In this document: positions 45,846 to 52,014 of the stretch, in pieces
Position numbering within the stretch: the first letter of the stretch is position 1
Layout: each line of letters begins with the position of its first letter
Assembly (NCBI RefSeq): GCF_002940665.1
Contig: NZ_MIGY01000004.1
Location: forward strand, 62,001-126,000
Source: Xanthomonas arboricola
Lineage (GTDB): Bacteria; Pseudomonadota; Gammaproteobacteria; Xanthomonadales; Xanthomonadaceae
Direction of reading: 5' to 3'
Length of the DNA stretch: 64,000 nucleotides
Program-made: the position numbers and the translations under genes
The notes under the pieces: model-generated
What the model saw: only the letters and a program-made list of their open reading frames with translations
The model's database searches: none
What the model was told of the DNA's origin: nothing

Positions 45846-46241
45846 ATGCAACGCCTGCTTCTTGTTTCGAGCATGCTGCTCGCGCTGTCCGCCTGCAGCG
45901 ACAACGCCGCGCCCACCACCGACAAGGCCGACAAGCCGGTGCCGCTGCCGCTGTTTGTACATGGTGGCCCGTGGGCGCGCGGCAGCTACGGCGGCTAAGG
46001 CCAAGAACATTCCGGTCACCTACCTGCTGTTCCCGGACGAAGGCCACGGCTTCCGCCGCCCGGAAAACAGCACGGCCTTCAACGCGGTGACCGAGGGTTT
46101 CCTGGACCAATGCCTGGGCGGCCGCGTGCAACCGATCGGCAACGACCTGACCGGCTCCAGCATCACGTGCCGGAAGGCGCCGACAAGGTGAACGGTCTAC
46201 GCGATGCGTTGAAGACCCATGCGCAGGCGATTCGGCGGTAA
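45846..46241 (+). pseudogene. Remnant of an S9 (prolyl oligopeptidase/DAP) peptidase
   Basis: The first 150 bp encode a lipoprotein-like signal (MQRLLLVSSMLLALSACSDN) that passes within 15 residues into PLPLFVHGGPWARGSYGG, a block that belongs deep in the catalytic domain of S9 peptidases, and then stops. Immediately after, another frame reads KAKNIPVTYLLFPDEGHGFRRPENSTAFNAVTEGFLDQCLGG, the region around the catalytic His. One base is missing near 46167 (itgtgccgg-like position), after which PEGADKVNGLRDALKTHAQAIRR and a stop follow. At least two large deletions and a frameshift are needed to explain this, so the gene is dead. Confidence 0.8.
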
Positions 46242-46391
46242 CGCTATTTGCGAAGTGCTTGCTTTGGATCTACGTCAGCGCTCGCCTACAACGAAGAGCG
46301 CTGACGGTTGGACCGAGGTGCTTTAACGAACCGGTACGCTTGATTCCCCTCGCCAAGCGGTCCAGATCGAGAGATGTGTGATGGTCTCTCG

Positions 46392-47609
46392 CTAATGGGG
46401 TCCGATGTCCTTGCCCGCCGCTGGGTCACGACCAGACGACCACACTGCGCCACCGGGATCCAGCTCGGTATTGTTCATCTCCTCGCCACGCCAACCGAAT
46501 CCGCAGATGGCCAGTGGTCCGTCCTGGAGGCCGTCCAGGCCAAGCGCCTGTTCGATATCCACCTCGTTGATTGCCGAGGTGACAAACGCTCCCAGCCCCA
46601 GATCGGTTGCGCTCAGATAAAGCGTCTGCGCGATATGGCCGACATCCAGAATCATCGCGCGGTAGGCCTTGGCATGGTTCCGATACTTCCAGAAACTGCG
46701 TAGAAACCGCGGTACCAGGATCACCAGCACCGGCGCATCGGCAAACCAGTACTGCCCGGACACAGCACGACGCGCAAAGTCCACCAGCGGCTGCGGTGGC
46801 GACTGCAATGGCTGCAATGGCTGCAATGCATGATCGACAGGGCGATAGTGATAGAGACCGCTCGTCATCCCCTCGACACGCTGGACCAGCAGATAGGTTT
46901 CGGTGGGATGGAGACTGCCCCCCGACGGTACCGGCTTCTTCAAGAATGCGGTGTCGTGCCCCACTTCGATGCGCGCGCTTGCCATGACGCTGCGCTCAAG
47001 CATCTGGCCGAGCAAGATGGGTGACAGCAGACGCTGCGTATCGAAATTGCGACAGGTGACGCGACGCGACAGCAGCTCATCGAATGTGCCCGGGGTTGAT
47101 CGCGGCAAGGCAATGCGCGCCTCCACGCCGCCCTTGCCTCGGTCTACGATCTCTGCCGGGGGTGCGCCCAGCCGGCCTACCATGCCTTCTGCAGTTGTCA
47201 GGCCATGCGCTTCCATGGTGGCCACGCTGTCTTCGCCGCTCCAGCGCGCCGATCGGTGCCATAACGCGGCCAATGGCCACCAGCGCTGCTGCTGCACGCA
47301 CTCGTCGTTGCGGCGGTGCTGAACATGTTGTGGTTGATCGCTGATCACAAGACCTTGCTCGATTAGACGCTCCGCCCAGATTGGCAACGGATGCACCTGA
47401 TCGATGGAATGCCAGCGCGAGGAACTCAACTCGCCCAGCCATTCGCGCTCGTCCTTTGAAACCTCCACGTCTGCATCAAGATGAGGCGCGAGCGCCAGCC
47501 AGCGTGTGCGGCGACGCAGGCCATCGCCACCGGCAAGCAATCGTGCAAGATCAAATACCGAATCGTCGCGCAGTTCAAAAAATAGCGTGGTACAGCGACG
47601 AATTTGCAT
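46392..47609 (-). CDS. SagB-like putative peptide maturation dehydrogenase
   Basis: A 405-residue protein. Residues 1-170 are unlike known enzymes and may bind the peptide. From about 180 a nitroreductase/SagB-type FMN oxidoreductase fold follows: SRRVTCRNFDTQRLLSP, then VPSGGSLHPTETYLLVQ (the PSxGGxxHPxE signature of SagB/ThcOx dehydrogenases), GLYHYRP, and LYLSATDLGLGAFVTSAINE. This corresponds to the family described as putative peptide maturation dehydrogenase, found beside a modified-peptide precursor. SagB enzymes oxidise azolines to azoles, but no YcaO cyclodehydratase is present here. It is divergent from the precursor gene across 95 bp. Confidence 0.8.
   Translation of the reverse strand: MQIRRCTTLFFELRDDSVFDLARLLAGGDGLRRRTRWLALAPHLDADVEVSKDEREWLGELSSSRWHSIDQVHPLPIWAERLIEQGLVISDQPQHVQHRRNDECVQQQRWWPLAALWHRSARWSGEDSVATMEAHGLTTAEGMVGRLGAPPAEIVDRGKGGVEARIALPRSTPGTFDELLSRRVTCRNFDTQRLLSPILLGQMLERSVMASARIEVGHDTAFLKKPVPSGGSLHPTETYLLVQRVEGMTSGLYHYRPVDHALQPLQPLQSPPQPLVDFARRAVSGQYWFADAPVLVILVPRFLRSFWKYRNHAKAYRAMILDVGHIAQTLYLSATDLGLGAFVTSAINEVDIEQALGLDGLQDGPLAICGFGWRGEEMNNTELDPGGAVWSSGRDPAAGKDIGPH
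46803..46827. repeat. Nearly three copies of a 9-bp repeat inside the dehydrogenase gene
   Basis: ctgcaatgg occurs at 46803, 46812 and (partly) 46821. On the coding strand it encodes LQP LQP LQ. Copy-number change would add or remove three residues without a frameshift. Confidence 0.55.
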
Positions 47610-47704
47610 AGGAACATCTCAAGGACGCATGAATACGGTCGATATTGTGTCAGGTCCCACGTCATACGACAGCACATTCCCTCACTCTCCAGGCAAGCCA
47701 CACC

Positions 47705-48043
47705 ATGACAGACGCAGCCAATAACACCCATCTTCCGTTTGATGCATCCACAGCAGACAAGCTGCTGGAGCTACTGGCAACCGACGACGATTTCCGCGAC
47801 TGCTTTCAATGCAATCCGGCGCAGGCGCTTGCCCAGATCGGTGCACCTGGCGTGAGTGCGGACAACGCCGTCCCCAGCGCAGGAGAGGCTTATTACTGCA
47901 TGAACACCAATCAGCTCGCATCCAAGCAGGACATTGCAGCGGCTCGCGCCGAGCTGCGGATCTACCTGACCGAAAAGGCCAATCACACCGTGATCTTCGC
48001 CTTCGAGTCGGACAGCATGCGCTCCACCCTGCTGCGTAAATAA
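47705..48043 (+). CDS. Putative RiPP precursor (NHLP-like leader, modified-peptide family)
   Basis: A 112-residue peptide starting MTDAANNTHLPFDASTADK at 47705. Residues 15-48 (DKLLELLATDDDFRDCFQCNPAQALAQIGAP) resemble the nitrile-hydratase/Nif11-like leader found on several RiPP precursors. Cysteines are at 33 and 36 (CFQC) and 65 (YYCMNTN); the tail (about 85-112) is IYLTEKANHTVIFAFESDSMRSTLLRK. There is no Gly-Gly cleavage site. It lies between a SagB-like dehydrogenase and a nucleotide cyclase, the three-part arrangement known in databases as putative modified peptide, peptide maturation dehydrogenase and peptide modification system cyclase. Core and product unknown. Its last 61 bp overlap the 3' end of the cyclase gene. 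Confidence 0.7.
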   Translation: MTDAANNTHLPFDASTADKLLELLATDDDFRDCFQCNPAQALAQIGAPGVSADNAVPSAGEAYYCMNTNQLASKQDIAAARAELRIYLTEKANHTVIFAFESDSMRSTLLRK

Positions 48044-50643
48044 GCAGGCAGTCTCGGTAGAGGCCAGGCGCGCGCAAACGCCTGCGCCTGTTCGCGCGCC
48101 TCCTGGGTACGGCCGAGTGCGTGCAGCGATTCGGCCATCCAGAGCTGGGCCAGACGCGCATCGGCAACATTGAGCGGCTGCAGCGTTTGCGACGCATTTG
48201 CTTCGATGTAAGCACGCCCGCGATGGAGAAGCAGCCAACGTGCCTGTTGCAACGCCTCAGCGTGCCGACCGCTCTCGTGCAGTAGCGTGTAGAGCGTCAC
48301 GCGTGCCAGAAAAAGATCGCCGTCGCTGACCGGCAGGCGTGCGATGGCTGCCTCACGGTCGCCCGACAGCGCCAGCTGCTGGGCTTCGACAATGGCGCGC
48401 AGGTCGGCAAGCACCGGCGTTTCATGCACAAGCGCCGGCTTGATCGCCGCAAGTGCGCGGGCGGTGAGGCTGTCATCGCCGCTCCGCTGCGCCTGGCTTG
48501 CGAGGATCAGCACCATCGCGGCATTGTCCTGCAGGTTTACCGTTGCCGATCCATCGTCAATGACCGCAGACACCAGCCGATCGAACGTTGGCTTGAGCGC
48601 TGCCGCCGTCGCCATGGATGGATCGACCAACGCATCGGTCGTCACCGCAATGACCGAGAATTGCCGATGGTTGAAATCGTCGCCTTGCTTGCTGCGCGCC
48701 AAACCTTGGGCGATCGCTGCGCGCGCAGCGGTCCAGTCGGCCTGATCAATTGCGATGCTGGTGCGATCGATCAATGGCACCACATCGTCGTTGGCGTAGC
48801 CTTGCTCGACGATCCTGTCGAGCGTTTGCTTCGCTTCGACATGGCGATTCAACACCGCCAGCGCGTTCGCCTGGCGCCGCAGCGGGCCGGCGCGATCGGC
48901 ATCACCGGGAATGGAAAAGCGCTGCAGCGCCGCTTCGGCCTTTCCCTGAGCCAGCAGAATGCGTCCAACCCGATCGGTCGCGATCGCGCGCAGCGGGTCT
49001 TGCGGGACATCGGCCGCCTGCGCGTATGGCAACGCGTCGGCAAAACGATTGGCAACGAACAGGTGCCACGATGCGTTCGCGGTGCCGGCAAAATTGTCCG
49101 GGTAGAGCGAGGCCAGCGTTCTCCACAACGTCAATGCCTTGTCGGGTGCTAGCAGCTCCGCTGCCCATGCATCCATATACAACTGATCACGCTCAGGCAG
49201 ACGCTGACGGAAACGAATTGCCTTCTCCAGGTACGGAAGTGCACCACGGCGATCAGAGACCGCCACCTTGATGCGTGCCGCCCCCAGATACGCGAGCGCA
49301 AATTCCGGATCGATGGCCACCGCGCGCTCGAATAGTTCCAGCCCTTCTTTCCATTGGCCTTTCGCCGTTGCGTCGACCCCCAGGGCATAAGCCCGCAGCG
49401 CATCCAGGCTGGACGTGGTCACGGCGGGTAACGGCACAGAATTCTTGTCGATCGAGGCCACCACCTCACCCAGGCCCTTCCTGAGCTTGCGGGCAACCTG
49501 ATCCACCGAGGACAGTGCCGATGGCAAGCCATCGCCTTGCACAAACTCCGAGTAGACAGTGGTCTGGGTCCGCGGATCCACCAATTCAACGCCGAACCGG
49601 AGCTTGCCGCCAATCTCCGCGACGGTCGGCAGCAGCACAGCGCTTGCACCATCGCGCAGCGCCACCTCCGAGGCGATGGCGCGATCGACGATCACGCGAT
49701 CCGGATCGCGCTTCATCCGGGCCATGGTTTCGCGCACTTTCATATCACTCAGGACATTGACGTAGCGCGACTGCTCCAGACTGATGCGCAGCGCCTGGTC
49801 GAGCGAACTGTCGAGCAATGTATTGCCGGTGAGATTACGTAGATCCCCGACCACCACCCACCCACGTTCGGAGAACGCAATGGCTGGCTCGGAACGGGTG
49901 AAAAACCACACCGACACGCACACCGCGACGACCAAGGCGGTTTCCGCCAACAGTGCCGCAGGCCGTCGCCACAGCGGAACATCGCGCCAGGCCTTTGCCG
50001 AATTCTTCGGCGTGCGCAACGGCGTCAGGCCGACTTCGCCAACCTCATAGATCTCCATCGGCGTGGGCACGCCCTTGAAGCGCCAGCGGCCGTGGGATTT
50101 CCACAGGATGCGATCGCCGCGGTCGCCCAGTTCGCGTGCGGCGCGGTGGGTCAACGACTCGGCCACTGCCGACAACAGGATCTGCCCGGGCCGTGCCATC
50201 GACATCAGGCGTGCGGCGGTGGGCTTGGCCAAGCCTTCGACTTCCAGCGGTTTGGCGCCGATGCTGACCGCTTCGTCGCTGTTGCGCCAGGTCAGCACTT
50301 CGCCGACGTGCAGCCCCTGGCGCGCGCACAGCGTCAGCGCGCGGGCATCGCCCATCGCCTTGAGGCCGCGGGCGTAATCCAGTGCAAAGCCCAGACCGTC
50401 GATGGGGCGATCGAACAGCAACAGCAATCCATCCGAGCGGTCGATCAGGCGGCCACGCCACTGCTGCTGCAGTTTGACGACCAGCCGATCGTGCTCGCGA
50501 AACAGCGCGGCGGCGGCGTTGTCACCAATGCGTTCGACCAGCGCGGTCGAATCGCACAGGTCGGTCAGCAGCAAGGTACGCAAGCGCGGCGCCTGGATCG
50601 CTTCCAACGACGCATCCTTGCGTGCGTGGGCGCGAGCGCTCAT
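47983..50643 (-). CDS. Membrane class III nucleotide (guanylate) cyclase with TPR-like region
   Basis: An 886-residue protein. Residues 20-200 form a class III cyclase domain: metal ligand Asp28 in LLLTDLCDSTALVERIG, second Asp71 in DRSDGLLLLF, and Arg145 in AKPTAARLMSMARPGQILLS. The Asn usually four residues before that Arg is Pro141. One membrane helix lies at about 229-249, then a TolB/FlgO-like domain (about 262-375, VVVGDLRNLTGN...), then TPR-like helices to the end. In X. campestris an orthologous-looking protein (XC_0250, from memory) makes cGMP and works with its neighbour XC_0249. Databases also call this family putative peptide modification system cyclase. The GGDEF gene is 3 bp upstream. 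Confidence 0.8.
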   Translation of the reverse strand: MSARAHARKDASLEAIQAPRLRTLLLTDLCDSTALVERIGDNAAAALFREHDRLVVKLQQQWRGRLIDRSDGLLLLFDRPIDGLGFALDYARGLKAMGDARALTLCARQGLHVGEVLTWRNSDEAVSIGAKPLEVEGLAKPTAARLMSMARPGQILLSAVAESLTHRAARELGDRGDRILWKSHGRWRFKGVPTPMEIYEVGEVGLTPLRTPKNSAKAWRDVPLWRRPAALLAETALVVAVCVSVWFFTRSEPAIAFSERGWVVVGDLRNLTGNTLLDSSLDQALRISLEQSRYVNVLSDMKVRETMARMKRDPDRVIVDRAIASEVALRDGASAVLLPTVAEIGGKLRFGVELVDPRTQTTVYSEFVQGDGLPSALSSVDQVARKLRKGLGEVVASIDKNSVPLPAVTTSSLDALRAYALGVDATAKGQWKEGLELFERAVAIDPEFALAYLGAARIKVAVSDRRGALPYLEKAIRFRQRLPERDQLYMDAWAAELLAPDKALTLWRTLASLYPDNFAGTANASWHLFVANRFADALPYAQAADVPQDPLRAIATDRVGRILLAQGKAEAALQRFSIPGDADRAGPLRRQANALAVLNRHVEAKQTLDRIVEQGYANDDVVPLIDRTSIAIDQADWTAARAAIAQGLARSKQGDDFNHRQFSVIAVTTDALVDPSMATAAALKPTFDRLVSAVIDDGSATVNLQDNAAMVLILASQAQRSGDDSLTARALAAIKPALVHETPVLADLRAIVEAQQLALSGDREAAIARLPVSDGDLFLARVTLYTLLHESGRHAEALQQARWLLLHRGRAYIEANASQTLQPLNVADARLAQLWMAESLHALGRTQEAREQAQAFARAWPLPRLPAYLRSRVERMLSDSKAKITV

Positions 50644-50646
50644 TGC

Positions 50647-51723
50647 TCAGCGATTGTCCGACGTGGTTGGGTTGCCGGATGGCTGTGTGATGCCCGACAC
50701 CAGCGTTTCATGCATGCACAGCACGTTGCCGCCCTGTCGCTTTGCCTCGTACAGTGCGCTGTCGGCCAGCGTGTACCAATCGTTCCATGCCGCGTCGGCG
50801 TCGATCATGCACAGACCCACGCTGACCGAGCAGCCCTGCTCGCCCTGGCCATTGCCCAGGCGCGCCTCCACCGCGCGTACGATGCATTCGCCGATGTGAT
50901 GCAGCAGCTCCTGGGTGCCCAGTGCGACCAGCACGCAGAATTCGTCGCCGCCGAGCCGGCAGGCGAGGTCGCCGTCGGCTATGACCGAACGCAGTGCATG
51001 GGCGACGTTCTGCAACACGCGGTCGCCAGCCAGATGACCGAATTCGTCGTTGATGCGCTTGAAGCGGTCGCAGTCGATCAGGATCAGGCCCACCCCGGGC
51101 ACGCGGCCGGCGCGTCGGCATTCCTGCAGATGCAGGGCGAGGCCGCGACGGTTGTGCAGGCCGGTGAGCTCGTCGGTGCGGCTGAGTTCTTCGGTGTGGT
51201 TGAGCTGGTGCGAGGTGACGTAGAGGTTGTCCAGCGCCGCTTCCAGGTCGTGATTGCGCCGGCGCAACTGGCGGATCAGCAACTGCTCGTTGTTGACCAC
51301 GCGCACGATGGAGCGGCGCAGAAAATGCGCCACCATCGACGGATTGTGGTCGACCAGGCGCTGGAAGTCTTCATGCGCCAGTTCGATCAGACGGGTGTCG
51401 GCGGATGCGCTGGCGCCGGCACTGCGCGCATGGTCGCCGATCAGCAGGCCAAGTTCGCCGAAGAATTCGCCCGGGCCCAGGTGCTTGAGCATCAGGTCTT
51501 CGCCGAAATCCAGATCGACCTGGCCACTGACCACGATGAACATCTGCGTGCCCACCGCCCCGCGCTCGAACAGCGCCTGGCCGGCAGCCAATTCGCGAGC
51601 ACGGCCAAAGCGGGCGAAAAACGCCAGCTCTTCGGCAGTCATCAGCGCATGCAGCCCGTCCGACAGCGTCTTTGCAACGCTCCCCGTCGGCTCCACTGCG
51701 CCGGCAGTGTTATGGCACGTCAT
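50647..51723 (-). CDS. cNMP-binding diguanylate cyclase
   Basis: A 358-residue protein. The start MTCHNTAGAVEPTGS (51723) has AAGGGA upstream; a start 45 bp earlier is open. Residues about 25-140 form a cyclic-nucleotide-binding domain with the phosphate cassette PGEFFGELGLLIGDHARSA (Glu90, Arg100). A helical linker (about 140-180) leads to a GGDEF domain (SRTDELTGLHNRRG...CRLGGDEF, 258-262); the motif is intact, but there is no RxxD inhibitory site before it. In X. campestris the matching protein (XC_0249) binds cGMP and then makes c-di-GMP, affecting biofilm and virulence. It forms an operon with the cyclase. Confidence 0.88.
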   Translation of the reverse strand: MTCHNTAGAVEPTGSVAKTLSDGLHALMTAEELAFFARFGRARELAAGQALFERGAVGTQMFIVVSGQVDLDFGEDLMLKHLGPGEFFGELGLLIGDHARSAGASASADTRLIELAHEDFQRLVDHNPSMVAHFLRRSIVRVVNNEQLLIRQLRRRNHDLEAALDNLYVTSHQLNHTEELSRTDELTGLHNRRGLALHLQECRRAGRVPGVGLILIDCDRFKRINDEFGHLAGDRVLQNVAHALRSVIADGDLACRLGGDEFCVLVALGTQELLHHIGECIVRAVEARLGNGQGEQGCSVSVGLCMIDADAAWNDWYTLADSALYEAKRQGGNVLCMHETLVSGITQPSGNPTTSDNR

Positions 51724-52014
51724 CCAAATTCCCTTAGACCGACCTGCAGCGCCGGCCTGCCCTAGCATCGTACAGGAGCGTTTTGTTCAGCACCAGGTCA
51801 CACTCTATCTCATTTAACTTGAGACGAAATGACGGGTATTTGCAAAAAAGTGAGGGCTCGGTTGCCCAAGCCCTTCGCTCCCTTCCTGCAGTAGCGCATA
51901 GCGCCGCGCGCGAGGCCGGCGCTGTTCTACGGTGCTGGCGCAGACTTGCCGGCGGGCAAAACCACATGCTCCGATCCATCCCGCAGCCAGCTGGCGAGCG
52001 TTCGCGACGCAGCG

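What the first reader, a model, noticed from the sequence alone, without database searches (positions are those of the whole stretch)
46392..51723. A putative modified-peptide (RiPP) locus physically fused to a cGMP to c-di-GMP signalling pair
Four genes stand together: a SagB-like dehydrogenase, a divergent 112-residue leader-bearing peptide, a membrane class III cyclase and a cNMP-binding GGDEF protein. From established knowledge, the last two match the X. campestris pair XC_0250/XC_0249, in which cGMP drives c-di-GMP synthesis and virulence; the first three match the database trio putative modified peptide / peptide modification system cyclase / peptide maturation dehydrogenase. The two descriptions concern the same cyclase and I know of no work joining them. 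Inference: the peptide, or its modified form, could be a signal sensed or controlled by the cGMP pathway, or the cyclase could gate peptide maturation.
Basis: partly seen in the sequence, partly recalled or inferred. Interest (0 to 1): 0.9.

Follow-up and report, generated by a model that had tools for sequence, protein, structure and literature searches.

The report
Swappable peptide-sensing cyclic-GMP signalling cassette
Xanthomonas and its relatives carry a four-gene unit in which a probably modified small peptide, the enzyme next to it and the outer half of a cyclic-GMP-making receptor are exchanged together as discrete types, while the inner signalling half stays constant, a pattern expected of a bacterial peptide signal and its receptor.

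Summary
The link is real. In 160 genomes of the order, peptide, DH and cyclase exceed their cut-offs in the same 34; 33 of those also have the GGDEF protein. The cyclase is modelled as cyclase domain, one membrane helix, small ectodomain and TPR superhelix. New here: across 28 Xanthomonas genomes the cyclase domain, GGDEF protein and flanks are conserved, but TPR part, peptide and DH form six allele groups that change together. DNA similarity stops inside the cyclase gene, in the ectodomain. The groups ignore the flank tree (11 changes; the three multi-member groups rejected as clades), and two groups occur under three species names. Six actinomycete genomes hold peptide plus DH without the cyclase. 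Best reading: DH matures a peptide signal, the TPR domain senses it outside the membrane, and cGMP switches on c-di-GMP synthesis; it works like agr or ComQXP pherotypes but is built of other parts. Binding, modification and export are not shown; co-transfer by adjacency is not excluded.

The parts
46392..47609 (-). SagB-like flavin dehydrogenase (putative peptide maturation dehydrogenase), 405 aa
   Evidence: TIGR04511 8.9e-167, PF00881; W307-K308-Y309 invariant in 22 aligned DHs and aligned with FWKY of CyaGox 5lq4
47610..47704 (.). 95-base divergent intergenic region between dehydrogenase and peptide; presumed promoters of both
   Evidence: gene coordinates; sequence printed; promoters not tested
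47705..48043 (+). NHLP-related RiPP-type precursor peptide, 112 aa: leader helices 14-44, helix 74-89, low-confidence variable tail about 90-112
   Evidence: TIGR04509 2e-32; AlphaFold2 model, mean pLDDT 72
47983..48043 (.). 61-base tail-to-tail overlap of peptide and cyclase reading frames
   Evidence: coordinates; peptide opposite the cyclase in 72 of 72 named loci that hold both, frames overlap in 36 of 72
47983..50643 (-). membrane guanylate cyclase, XC_0250 type, 886 aa
   Evidence: TIGR04510 1197.6 bits; 886 aa as XC_0250
50059..50586 (-). class III cyclase domain, residues 20-195, conserved side of the island boundary
49900..49974 (-). single membrane helix, residues 224-248, positively charged on the cyclase side
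   Evidence: hydropathy windows 227-250; helix 224-248 in the model
49441..49869 (-). alpha/beta ectodomain, residues 259-401; DNA similarity between allele groups stops inside it
   Evidence: model; in the 8 non-group-I loci shown blastn matches end at 49547-49844 (residues about 267-366; 49745-49844 in six of the eight)
47989..49407 (-). TPR superhelix, residues 413-885, inferred periplasmic, allele-specific
46241..49826 (.). hypervariable island (TPR part, peptide, DH): no DNA match to G061 here except 46456-46757 at 66%, between flanks at 91-93%
   Evidence: GC 61.7% (46392-49826) against 65-66% in flanks
50647..51723 (-). cNMP-binding GGDEF diguanylate cyclase, XC_0249 type, 358 aa (alternative start 51768)
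   Evidence: PF00027, PF00990; 5h5o match 1.2e-74; cited cGMP-contact residues present

Best explanation
A peptide-ligand / receptor-cyclase signalling unit with swappable specificity. The peptide is a RiPP-type precursor; its folded leader presents the variable C-terminal tail to the SagB-like dehydrogenase, which oxidises it. The mature product reaches the periplasm or outside by an export route encoded elsewhere and is sensed by the periplasmic TPR superhelix of the cyclase. The cytoplasmic class III domain then makes cGMP, which binds the neighbouring cNMP-GGDEF protein and raises c-di-GMP. Specificity lies in an exchangeable island (TPR ectodomain + peptide + DH) while the output (cyclase domain + GGDEF) stays constant, as in agr and ComQXP pherotypes. 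Shown by others: cGMP synthesis by XC_0250, cGMP activation of XC_0249, biofilm and virulence phenotypes. Shown here: conservation of the unit, modelled architecture, allele groups, boundary inside the cyclase gene, co-variation. Inferred: modification, export, binding, direction of signal, cell-to-cell role.
For: Trio in the same 34 of 160 genomes; GGDEF orthologue in 33 of those 34, in three of them on another contig than the trio. Model: cyclase domain, membrane helix 224-248, ectodomain, TPR superhelix. Within Xanthomonas (28 genomes, 378 pairs; fragmented G487 left out), ECTO+TPR identity correlates with DH identity (rho 0.76, Mantel p 2e-4) but not with the cyclase domain of the same protein (0.12, p 0.15), GGDEF (0.08, p 0.21) or aceA (0.12, p 0.06). 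DNA similarity ends inside the cyclase gene, at residues about 267-366. Flank tree: 11 changes for six groups; groups I, II, III rejected as clades. Nearest relatives outside the genus: in 6 of 9 genomes looked at, the three best TPR matches and three best DH matches share a locus, and which locus depends on the allele group; the best GGDEF match is L118 in all 9. Groups I and II both appear under X. arboricola, X. campestris and X. hortorum. Partial Mantel over 71 loci: tail-TPR 0.37, tail-DH 0.39 (p 5e-4), tail-cyclase domain -0.05. In 18 Stenotrophomonas-type loci TPR-peptide middle 0.92, TPR-tail 0.76, TPR-GGDEF -0.04. G091 keeps five peptides, DH and TPR ectodomain although its cyclase domain is degenerate (G72, L73, H112, G114, R145 changed) and no GGDEF orthologue was found. 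Peptide model: folded leader, unstructured tail.
Against: No exporter was recognised beside the unit (few recurring frames could be typed), and no signal-peptide predictor was run; by eye the peptide has no hydrophobic N-terminal segment. TPR part, peptide and DH are adjacent, so one recombination event moves all three and co-variation need not mean binding; mosaics are unlikely anyway because alleles share almost no DNA. Fast-evolving parts may correlate for rate reasons. DH shows a weak link to aceA (0.14, p 0.04). For group I (G000, G490) and G061 the best TPR and DH relatives do not share a locus. In Stenotrophomonas the cyclase domain also correlates with TPR (0.41), DH (0.73) and tail (0.47), and two of nine control pairs reach p under 0.05. 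Two genomes have an intact cyclase but no GGDEF orthologue (behind L143, L161); two keep the GGDEF gene without the trio (G106, G111). Expression of the cyclase domain alone restored biofilm in the published mutant, so the ectodomain is not required for output. What DH does is unknown; 12 of 135 peptides have no Cys.
Confidence: 0.56

Rival explanations
1. Hitchhiking: a recombination hot spot replaces a block between conserved flanks, and TPR part, peptide and DH vary together only because they are adjacent. The peptide pathway and the cGMP pathway do not interact.
For: The three parts are contiguous; allele DNA is too different for internal recombination; GC differs from flanks.
Against: It does not explain why the trio occurs in the same 34 of 160 genomes across five family codes, why GGDEF is kept when it lies on another contig (G014, G024, G073), or why the boundary falls in the ectodomain just past the membrane helix.
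Confidence: 0.14
2. Kin-discrimination or bacteriocin system: the product acts on other strains, and the allele-matched TPR ectodomain is an immunity or danger sensor that raises cGMP.
For: Allele groups independent of phylogeny also fit toxin-immunity loci; tandem peptide copies in G091 and Kribbella; a cyclase-less ectodomain paralogue in G096 and L159 could be an immunity copy.
Against: No exporter recognised at the locus; the published output is biofilm and virulence regulation; no match to the defence library beyond weak cNMP similarity to Pycsar effectors.
Confidence: 0.15
3. The cyclase gates or monitors peptide production: TPR ectodomain as a platform for peptide processing or export, cGMP reporting its state.
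For: NCBI names the cyclase a 'putative peptide modification system cyclase'; TPR tracks peptide and DH.
Against: Peptide and DH occur without any such cyclase in 6 of 6 actinomycete genomes, so it is not required there.
Confidence: 0.1
4. The peptide is not a secreted product but a cytoplasmic cofactor or regulator protein of the dehydrogenase.
For: The leader is better conserved than the tail and is the confidently modelled part; no secretion route is known; several copies can coexist with one DH.
Against: The C-terminal tail is modelled without structure and is the most variable segment (20% median identity), as expected of a RiPP core.
Confidence: 0.08

Closest known systems
XC_0250 / XC_0249 cGMP to c-di-GMP pathway of X. 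campestris (An et al. 2013, PMC3770947; Results part 1 of 2, Discussion and legends read)
   Same: Cyclase and cNMP-GGDEF orthologues; same length, same tested residues, same adjacency.
   Different: The paper does not mention peptide or dehydrogenase: 'peptide' as a word start, XC_0251, XC_0252 and XC_0253 occur 0 times in its main text. It calls the TPR part uncharacterised.
NCBIfam trio TIGR04509 / TIGR04510 / TIGR04511
   Same: All three proteins score far above the curated cut-offs; the trio is known to curators under matching names.
   Different: Only names were seen, not the full model notes; the names do not cover the cNMP-GGDEF partner, cGMP synthesis or allelic variation.
agr of Staphylococcus and ComQXP of Bacillus (recalled from established knowledge)
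   Same: Works alike: signal peptide, modifying enzyme and sensor part of the receptor vary together in groups; output part is constant.
   Different: No AgrB, ComQ or histidine kinase; here a SagB-like DH, an NHLP-type precursor and a TPR receptor guanylate cyclase in Gram-negative bacteria.
SagB-type azoline dehydrogenases (McbC, CyaGox)
   Same: Same fold family by sequence; FWKY motif aligned with CyaGox.
   Different: No YcaO cyclodehydratase in 33 of 34 genomes, so the substrate is probably not an azoline.
Peptide-receptor guanylate cyclases of animals (GC-A; recalled)
   Same: Concept only: ligand ectodomain, one membrane helix, cytoplasmic guanylate cyclase domain.

Membership tests
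NCBIfam trio TIGR04509/04510/04511 | scores above curated cut-offs | tested here: met
   111.1/34, 1197.6/400, 554.9/240 bits
XC_0250/XC_0249 pathway | orthologous cyclase with the residues needed for activity | tested here: met
   886 aa; D41, D71, L73, A150, L157, A161 present
XC_0250/XC_0249 pathway | cGMP-binding residues of the GGDEF partner | tested here: met
   F73, E90, L91, H98, V142, N145, E146 present; the Glu of the diad is present in all 35 orthologues aligned, the Asn is not
XC_0250/XC_0249 pathway | cGMP synthesis and cGMP-stimulated c-di-GMP synthesis | not testable with these tools
   needs assays; shown for the X. campestris proteins
RiPP precursor (NHLP / proteusin clan) | NHLP-type leader | tested here: met
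RiPP precursor (NHLP / proteusin clan) | conserved leader, variable tail, modifying enzyme next to it | tested here: met
   median identity 37% leader, 20% tail; DH at every one of the 80 loci by construction of the search, peptide found beside it
RiPP precursor (NHLP / proteusin clan) | exporter or leader protease in the locus | tested here: inconclusive
   none recognised; 10 frames scanned, 4 with a Pfam match, one of these an S9-peptidase remnant-like frame in the window
RiPP precursor (NHLP / proteusin clan) | proven post-translational modification | not testable with these tools
   needs mass spectrometry
Azol(in)e RiPP pathway | YcaO cyclodehydratase | tested here: not met
   PF02624 in 1 of 34 genomes, not in the window's own
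agr / ComQXP type pherotype system | signal, modifier and receptor sensor vary together, output constant, groups not following phylogeny | tested here: met
agr / ComQXP type pherotype system | several groups within one species | tested here: met
   groups I and II under three species names; rests on database labels
agr / ComQXP type pherotype system | homologous parts (AgrB or ComQ, histidine kinase) | tested here: not met
   parts are DH, NHLP peptide and class III cyclase; not a member, may work like one
agr / ComQXP type pherotype system | group-specific activation by the secreted peptide | not testable with these tools
   needs purified peptide and receptor

The most novel reading that the evidence does not exclude
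Xanthomonadales use a ribosomal modified peptide as a pheromone with at least six pherotypes inside one genus, sensed by a bacterial receptor guanylate cyclase whose periplasmic TPR domain is the receptor; pherotype islands move across genera. Streptomyces and Kribbella have taken the peptide-DH half from Lysobacter without the receptor, so they may make the signal or a decoy.
Probability: 0.4. Interest if true: 0.95.

Novelty: new variant of a known kind. Interest (0 to 1): 0.87.

Why it matters
I found no statement of the input to this cGMP virulence and biofilm pathway: a 2019 review still calls the TPR part uncharacterised (PMC8042644, passages only). This locus names a candidate ligand, a candidate maturation enzyme and a candidate binding domain, all testable in vitro. 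If right, it would add a modified peptide signal to Gram-negative communication, give bacteria a peptide-receptor guanylate cyclase, and explain why closely related strains carry different islands.

Tried and rejected
Azoline chemistry with a YcaO partner: rejected, YcaO in 1 of 34 genomes. Cys as the modified residue in all peptides: rejected, 12 of 135 distinct peptides have none; at least three of the 135 were cut short by my start-picking rule (in L053, L170, L172), one of them among the Cys-less. A conserved exporter or protease beside the unit: none recognised. One search lists reading frames of 100 aa or more that recur in 4 or more of 35 loci, 10 frames were scanned and 4 had a Pfam match (Exo_endo_phos, Mg chelatase, P-II, and a below-cut-off S9 peptidase remnant in the window), so most recurring frames stay untyped. 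Gene names aceA, aceB, LysR and carboxylase are my reading of the translations, not a family search. Plasmid carriage: no match. Structured RNA: no Rfam match in 46000-52000. Defence system: only the cNMP domain shows weak similarity to Pycsar effectors. 'GGDEF is lost only where the cyclase is dead': true for G091, rejected for the genomes behind L143 and L161. 'G493 carries another DH allele': rejected, its DH is a broken frame; it was counted as it stands and the Mantel tests. G484 differs because its DH is 64-65% identical to group III, just over the 60% line. Co-loss within the genus as independent evidence: weak. Six of 35 genomes lack the cyclase and all six lack the GGDEF gene, but five of them also lack aceA (regional loss; one of these is 81% complete, one keeps peptide and DH remnants); the sixth, G471, keeps aceA at a contig end.

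Structure comparison of the whole cyclase model was filled by cyclase-domain rows, so the ectodomain fold was barely tested. No paper that joins peptide and cyclase was seen in the listings; this holds only for the CC-licensed library and those terms, most hits were seen as listings only, and lists were cut (12 of 17; 8 of 2,268; 10 of 14). A 2025 paper on TPR proteins modulating c-di-GMP in Vibrio vulnificus (PMC12282931) was seen in a listing and not read.
Full report
What is there. The window belongs to a Xanthomonas; the closest named DH relative is X. arboricola pv. juglandis, 98% identity. Four genes lie together: DH (46392-47609 -), a 112-aa peptide (47705-48043 +), an 886-aa cyclase (47983-50643 -) and a cNMP-GGDEF protein (50647-51723 or -51768 -). 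The first three score well above the NCBIfam cut-offs of TIGR04511, TIGR04509 and TIGR04510. The last two match XC_0250 and XC_0249: same cyclase length, and the residues cited in the parts of PMC3770947 that I read are present. Peptide and cyclase frames overlap by 61 bases, tail to tail.

Conservation of the unit. In 160 genomes drawn from the order, matches above cut-off for cyclase, DH and peptide number 34 each, in the same 34 genomes. The GGDEF orthologue (E <= 1e-45) is in 33 of those 34 and in 2 of 29 trio-less genomes searched; in 3 of the 33 it lies on another contig than the trio. In a sample of 299 genomes of the phylum the DH exceeds its cut-off in 5, all in the order and one of them the window's own. 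Of 35 loci fetched from the 34 genomes, 26 share flanking frames matching the aceA-aceB side of the window, so much of the co-occurrence is common descent at one site. Of 80 named loci (the best of 299 hits), 68 hold cyclase and GGDEF, 4 the cyclase without GGDEF at the locus, and 8 neither; the 8 are six actinomycetes and two Lysobacterales loci (L115, L163) whose genomes do hold the cyclase. The peptide is on the strand opposite the cyclase in 72 of 72 named loci with both.

Parts. The peptide model (mean pLDDT 72) has leader helices at 14-44, a helix at 74-89 and a tail without structure. Over 79 loci with exactly one of each gene, median pairwise identity is 37% in the leader, 35% in the middle and 20% in the tail; cyclase domain 72%, small ectodomain 57%, TPR part 28%, DH 50%, GGDEF domain 57%. 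Kribbella has five tandem peptides whose tails differ. The DH has an invariant W-K-Y in the 22 sequences aligned and no YcaO partner in 33 of 34 genomes. The cyclase model (mean pLDDT 86) shows a class III domain, a helix at 224-248, an alpha/beta domain at 259-401 and a TPR superhelix at 413-885. One membrane helix with a positively charged cyclase side, together with a GTP-using domain, puts the TPR part in the periplasm; that is inference.

The allelic island. I compared 28 Xanthomonas genomes; G487, whose genes are in pieces, was left out. Relative to the window, aceB is 88-100% identical, aceA 88-100%, GGDEF 80-100% and cyclase residues 1-195 83-100%. Beyond about residue 256, identity per segment is 11-67% in 13 genomes and 54-100% in the other 15. 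At 60% identity ECTO+TPR gives six groups: I (15 genomes, tail type HTVIFAFE), II (6, MQPIRLN), III (4, SHIVPQLDAGY) and three singles. DH gives the same groups except G493, whose DH is broken, and G484, whose DH just joins group III. Against G061 (group II), DNA matches at 91-93% end at 49827 on one side and 46240 on the other, with only a 66% stretch at 46456-46757 between. In the eight non-group-I loci shown, the cyclase-side match ends at 49547-49844, residues about 267-366, in six of them at 49745-49844. So the boundary is inside the cyclase gene, in the small ectodomain just past the membrane helix.

Allele against ancestry. On a tree of the conserved side and flanks (aceB, aceA, GGDEF, cyclase 1-195 and two carboxylase genes; 2,790 columns, 28 genomes) the six groups need 11 changes where 5 would be the least and shuffled labels give 12.1; groups I, II and III are rejected as clades (p 4e-75, 5e-6, 6e-60). 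ECTO+TPR and DH identities correlate (0.76, p 2e-4) while ECTO+TPR is near-independent of the cyclase domain in the same protein (0.12, p 0.15), GGDEF (0.08, p 0.21) and aceA (0.12, p 0.06); DH has a weak link to aceA (0.14, p 0.04). Outside the genus, nine genomes were looked at: the three best TPR and three best DH matches share a locus in six of them (L144 and L145 for group III, L145 for G484, L139 for G485, L126 for G492, L048 for G466). In G061 both lists are mainly Pseudoxanthomonas but share no locus, and in the two group I genomes TPR points to Stenotrophomonas and Lysobacter, DH to Lysobacter and actinomycetes. The best GGDEF match is L118 in all nine; the best cyclase-domain match varies (L044, L118, L103, L049) without following the groups. 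In G466 the DH has the other orientation, as in its relative L048, a different genus. Group I and group II peptides both occur under X. arboricola (L094, L095, P0005; P0144, P0145), X. campestris (P0007; P0140) and X. hortorum (L097, L098, P0010; P0138); this rests on database labels, and P0005 has the same peptide as the X. dyei locus L100. XC_0250, at 886 aa, has the length of group I (open frames 884-887 aa; group II 830-831, group III 838).

Wider co-variation. Over 71 loci (8 of 79 near-copies dropped), with cyclase domain, cNMP, GGDEF and ectodomain held constant, the peptide tail correlates with TPR (0.37) and DH (0.39), the middle with TPR (0.54) and DH (0.50), the leader with TPR (0.23) and DH (0.33), all p 5e-4; with TPR, DH and ectodomain held constant, tail-cyclase domain is -0.05, and two of the nine control pairs (middle-GGDEF 0.15, leader-GGDEF 0.16) reach p under 0.05. 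In 18 of 19 Stenotrophomonas-type loci TPR-peptide middle is 0.92, TPR-tail 0.76 and TPR-GGDEF -0.04, though TPR-cyclase domain is 0.41, DH-cyclase domain 0.73 and tail-cyclase domain 0.47.

Natural experiments. G091 has a degenerate cyclase domain (both metal-site aspartates kept, other motif residues changed) and no GGDEF orthologue but keeps DH, TPR ectodomain and five peptides. G096 and an S. maltophilia bin (L159) carry a second, cyclase-less ectodomain paralogue beside the DH. Six actinomycete genomes carry peptide and DH only; none has the cyclase at E <= 1e-20. In a quick tree of 59 DHs (54 of 80 named loci plus 5 unnamed) theirs branch inside Lysobacter: a set of 11 rows, 6 actinomycete and 5 Lysobacter, has support 96, the actinomycetes alone 88. 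So peptide and DH form a portable pair; the cyclase is what makes it a signalling unit.

Mechanism. The arrangement of a constant cytoplasmic output and a variable ectodomain-ligand-modifier block is that of agr and ComQXP (recalled). The best reading is that the matured peptide is the ligand of the TPR ectodomain and controls cGMP and, through the GGDEF partner, c-di-GMP. Not shown: that the peptide is expressed, modified, exported or bound. A main rival is co-transfer by adjacency. Published work adds one caution: the cyclase domain alone restored biofilm.

Known and new. The cGMP pathway and the NCBIfam trio are known separately. No paper in the listings appeared, by title and abstract start, to join them; PMC8939145, PMC8042644, PMC8846402 and PMC10333796 were read in passages only. 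The allelic island, its boundary inside the cyclase gene and the receptor-less actinomycete version are, as far as those searches go, new.

Noticed in passing
L105, L106, L107, L109, L112, L116: Five Streptomyces and one Kribbella carry the peptide-DH pair without cyclase or GGDEF at the locus; in two of the six (L107, L109), by eye only, an MFS-like gene stands next to the DH.
   Followed up: partly
L043:10739-12859 and L159:8888-11008: A second cyclase paralogue with ectodomain and TPR but no cyclase domain stands directly after the DH.
   Followed up: partly
L042:7222-9410: Five tandem, nearly identical peptide genes in a genome whose cyclase domain is degenerate.
   Followed up: partly
window 45862-46191: C-terminal remnant resembling a prolyl oligopeptidase (PF00326, E 3.6e-4, below cut-off) at the right edge of the island; the stretch from about 45997 to 46240 matches other Xanthomonas loci at 86-94% where blastn shows it as a separate match.
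   Followed up: no
window 50521-50562 (cyclase residues 28 to 41): The published first metal aspartate is D41, but D28 in the first strand (TDLCDS) is the usual class III position by recalled knowledge and is present in 108 of 112 sequences, D41 in 106.
   Followed up: no
cyclase residues 661-700, window 48544-48663: Within group I this TPR stretch is the most variable (48-54% mean pairwise identity, next lowest window 67%), a candidate ligand-contact region.
   Followed up: no
L137, L140, L147, L164: Stenotrophomonas loci with duplicated parts (two DHs and three peptides, or a second full cyclase).
   Followed up: no
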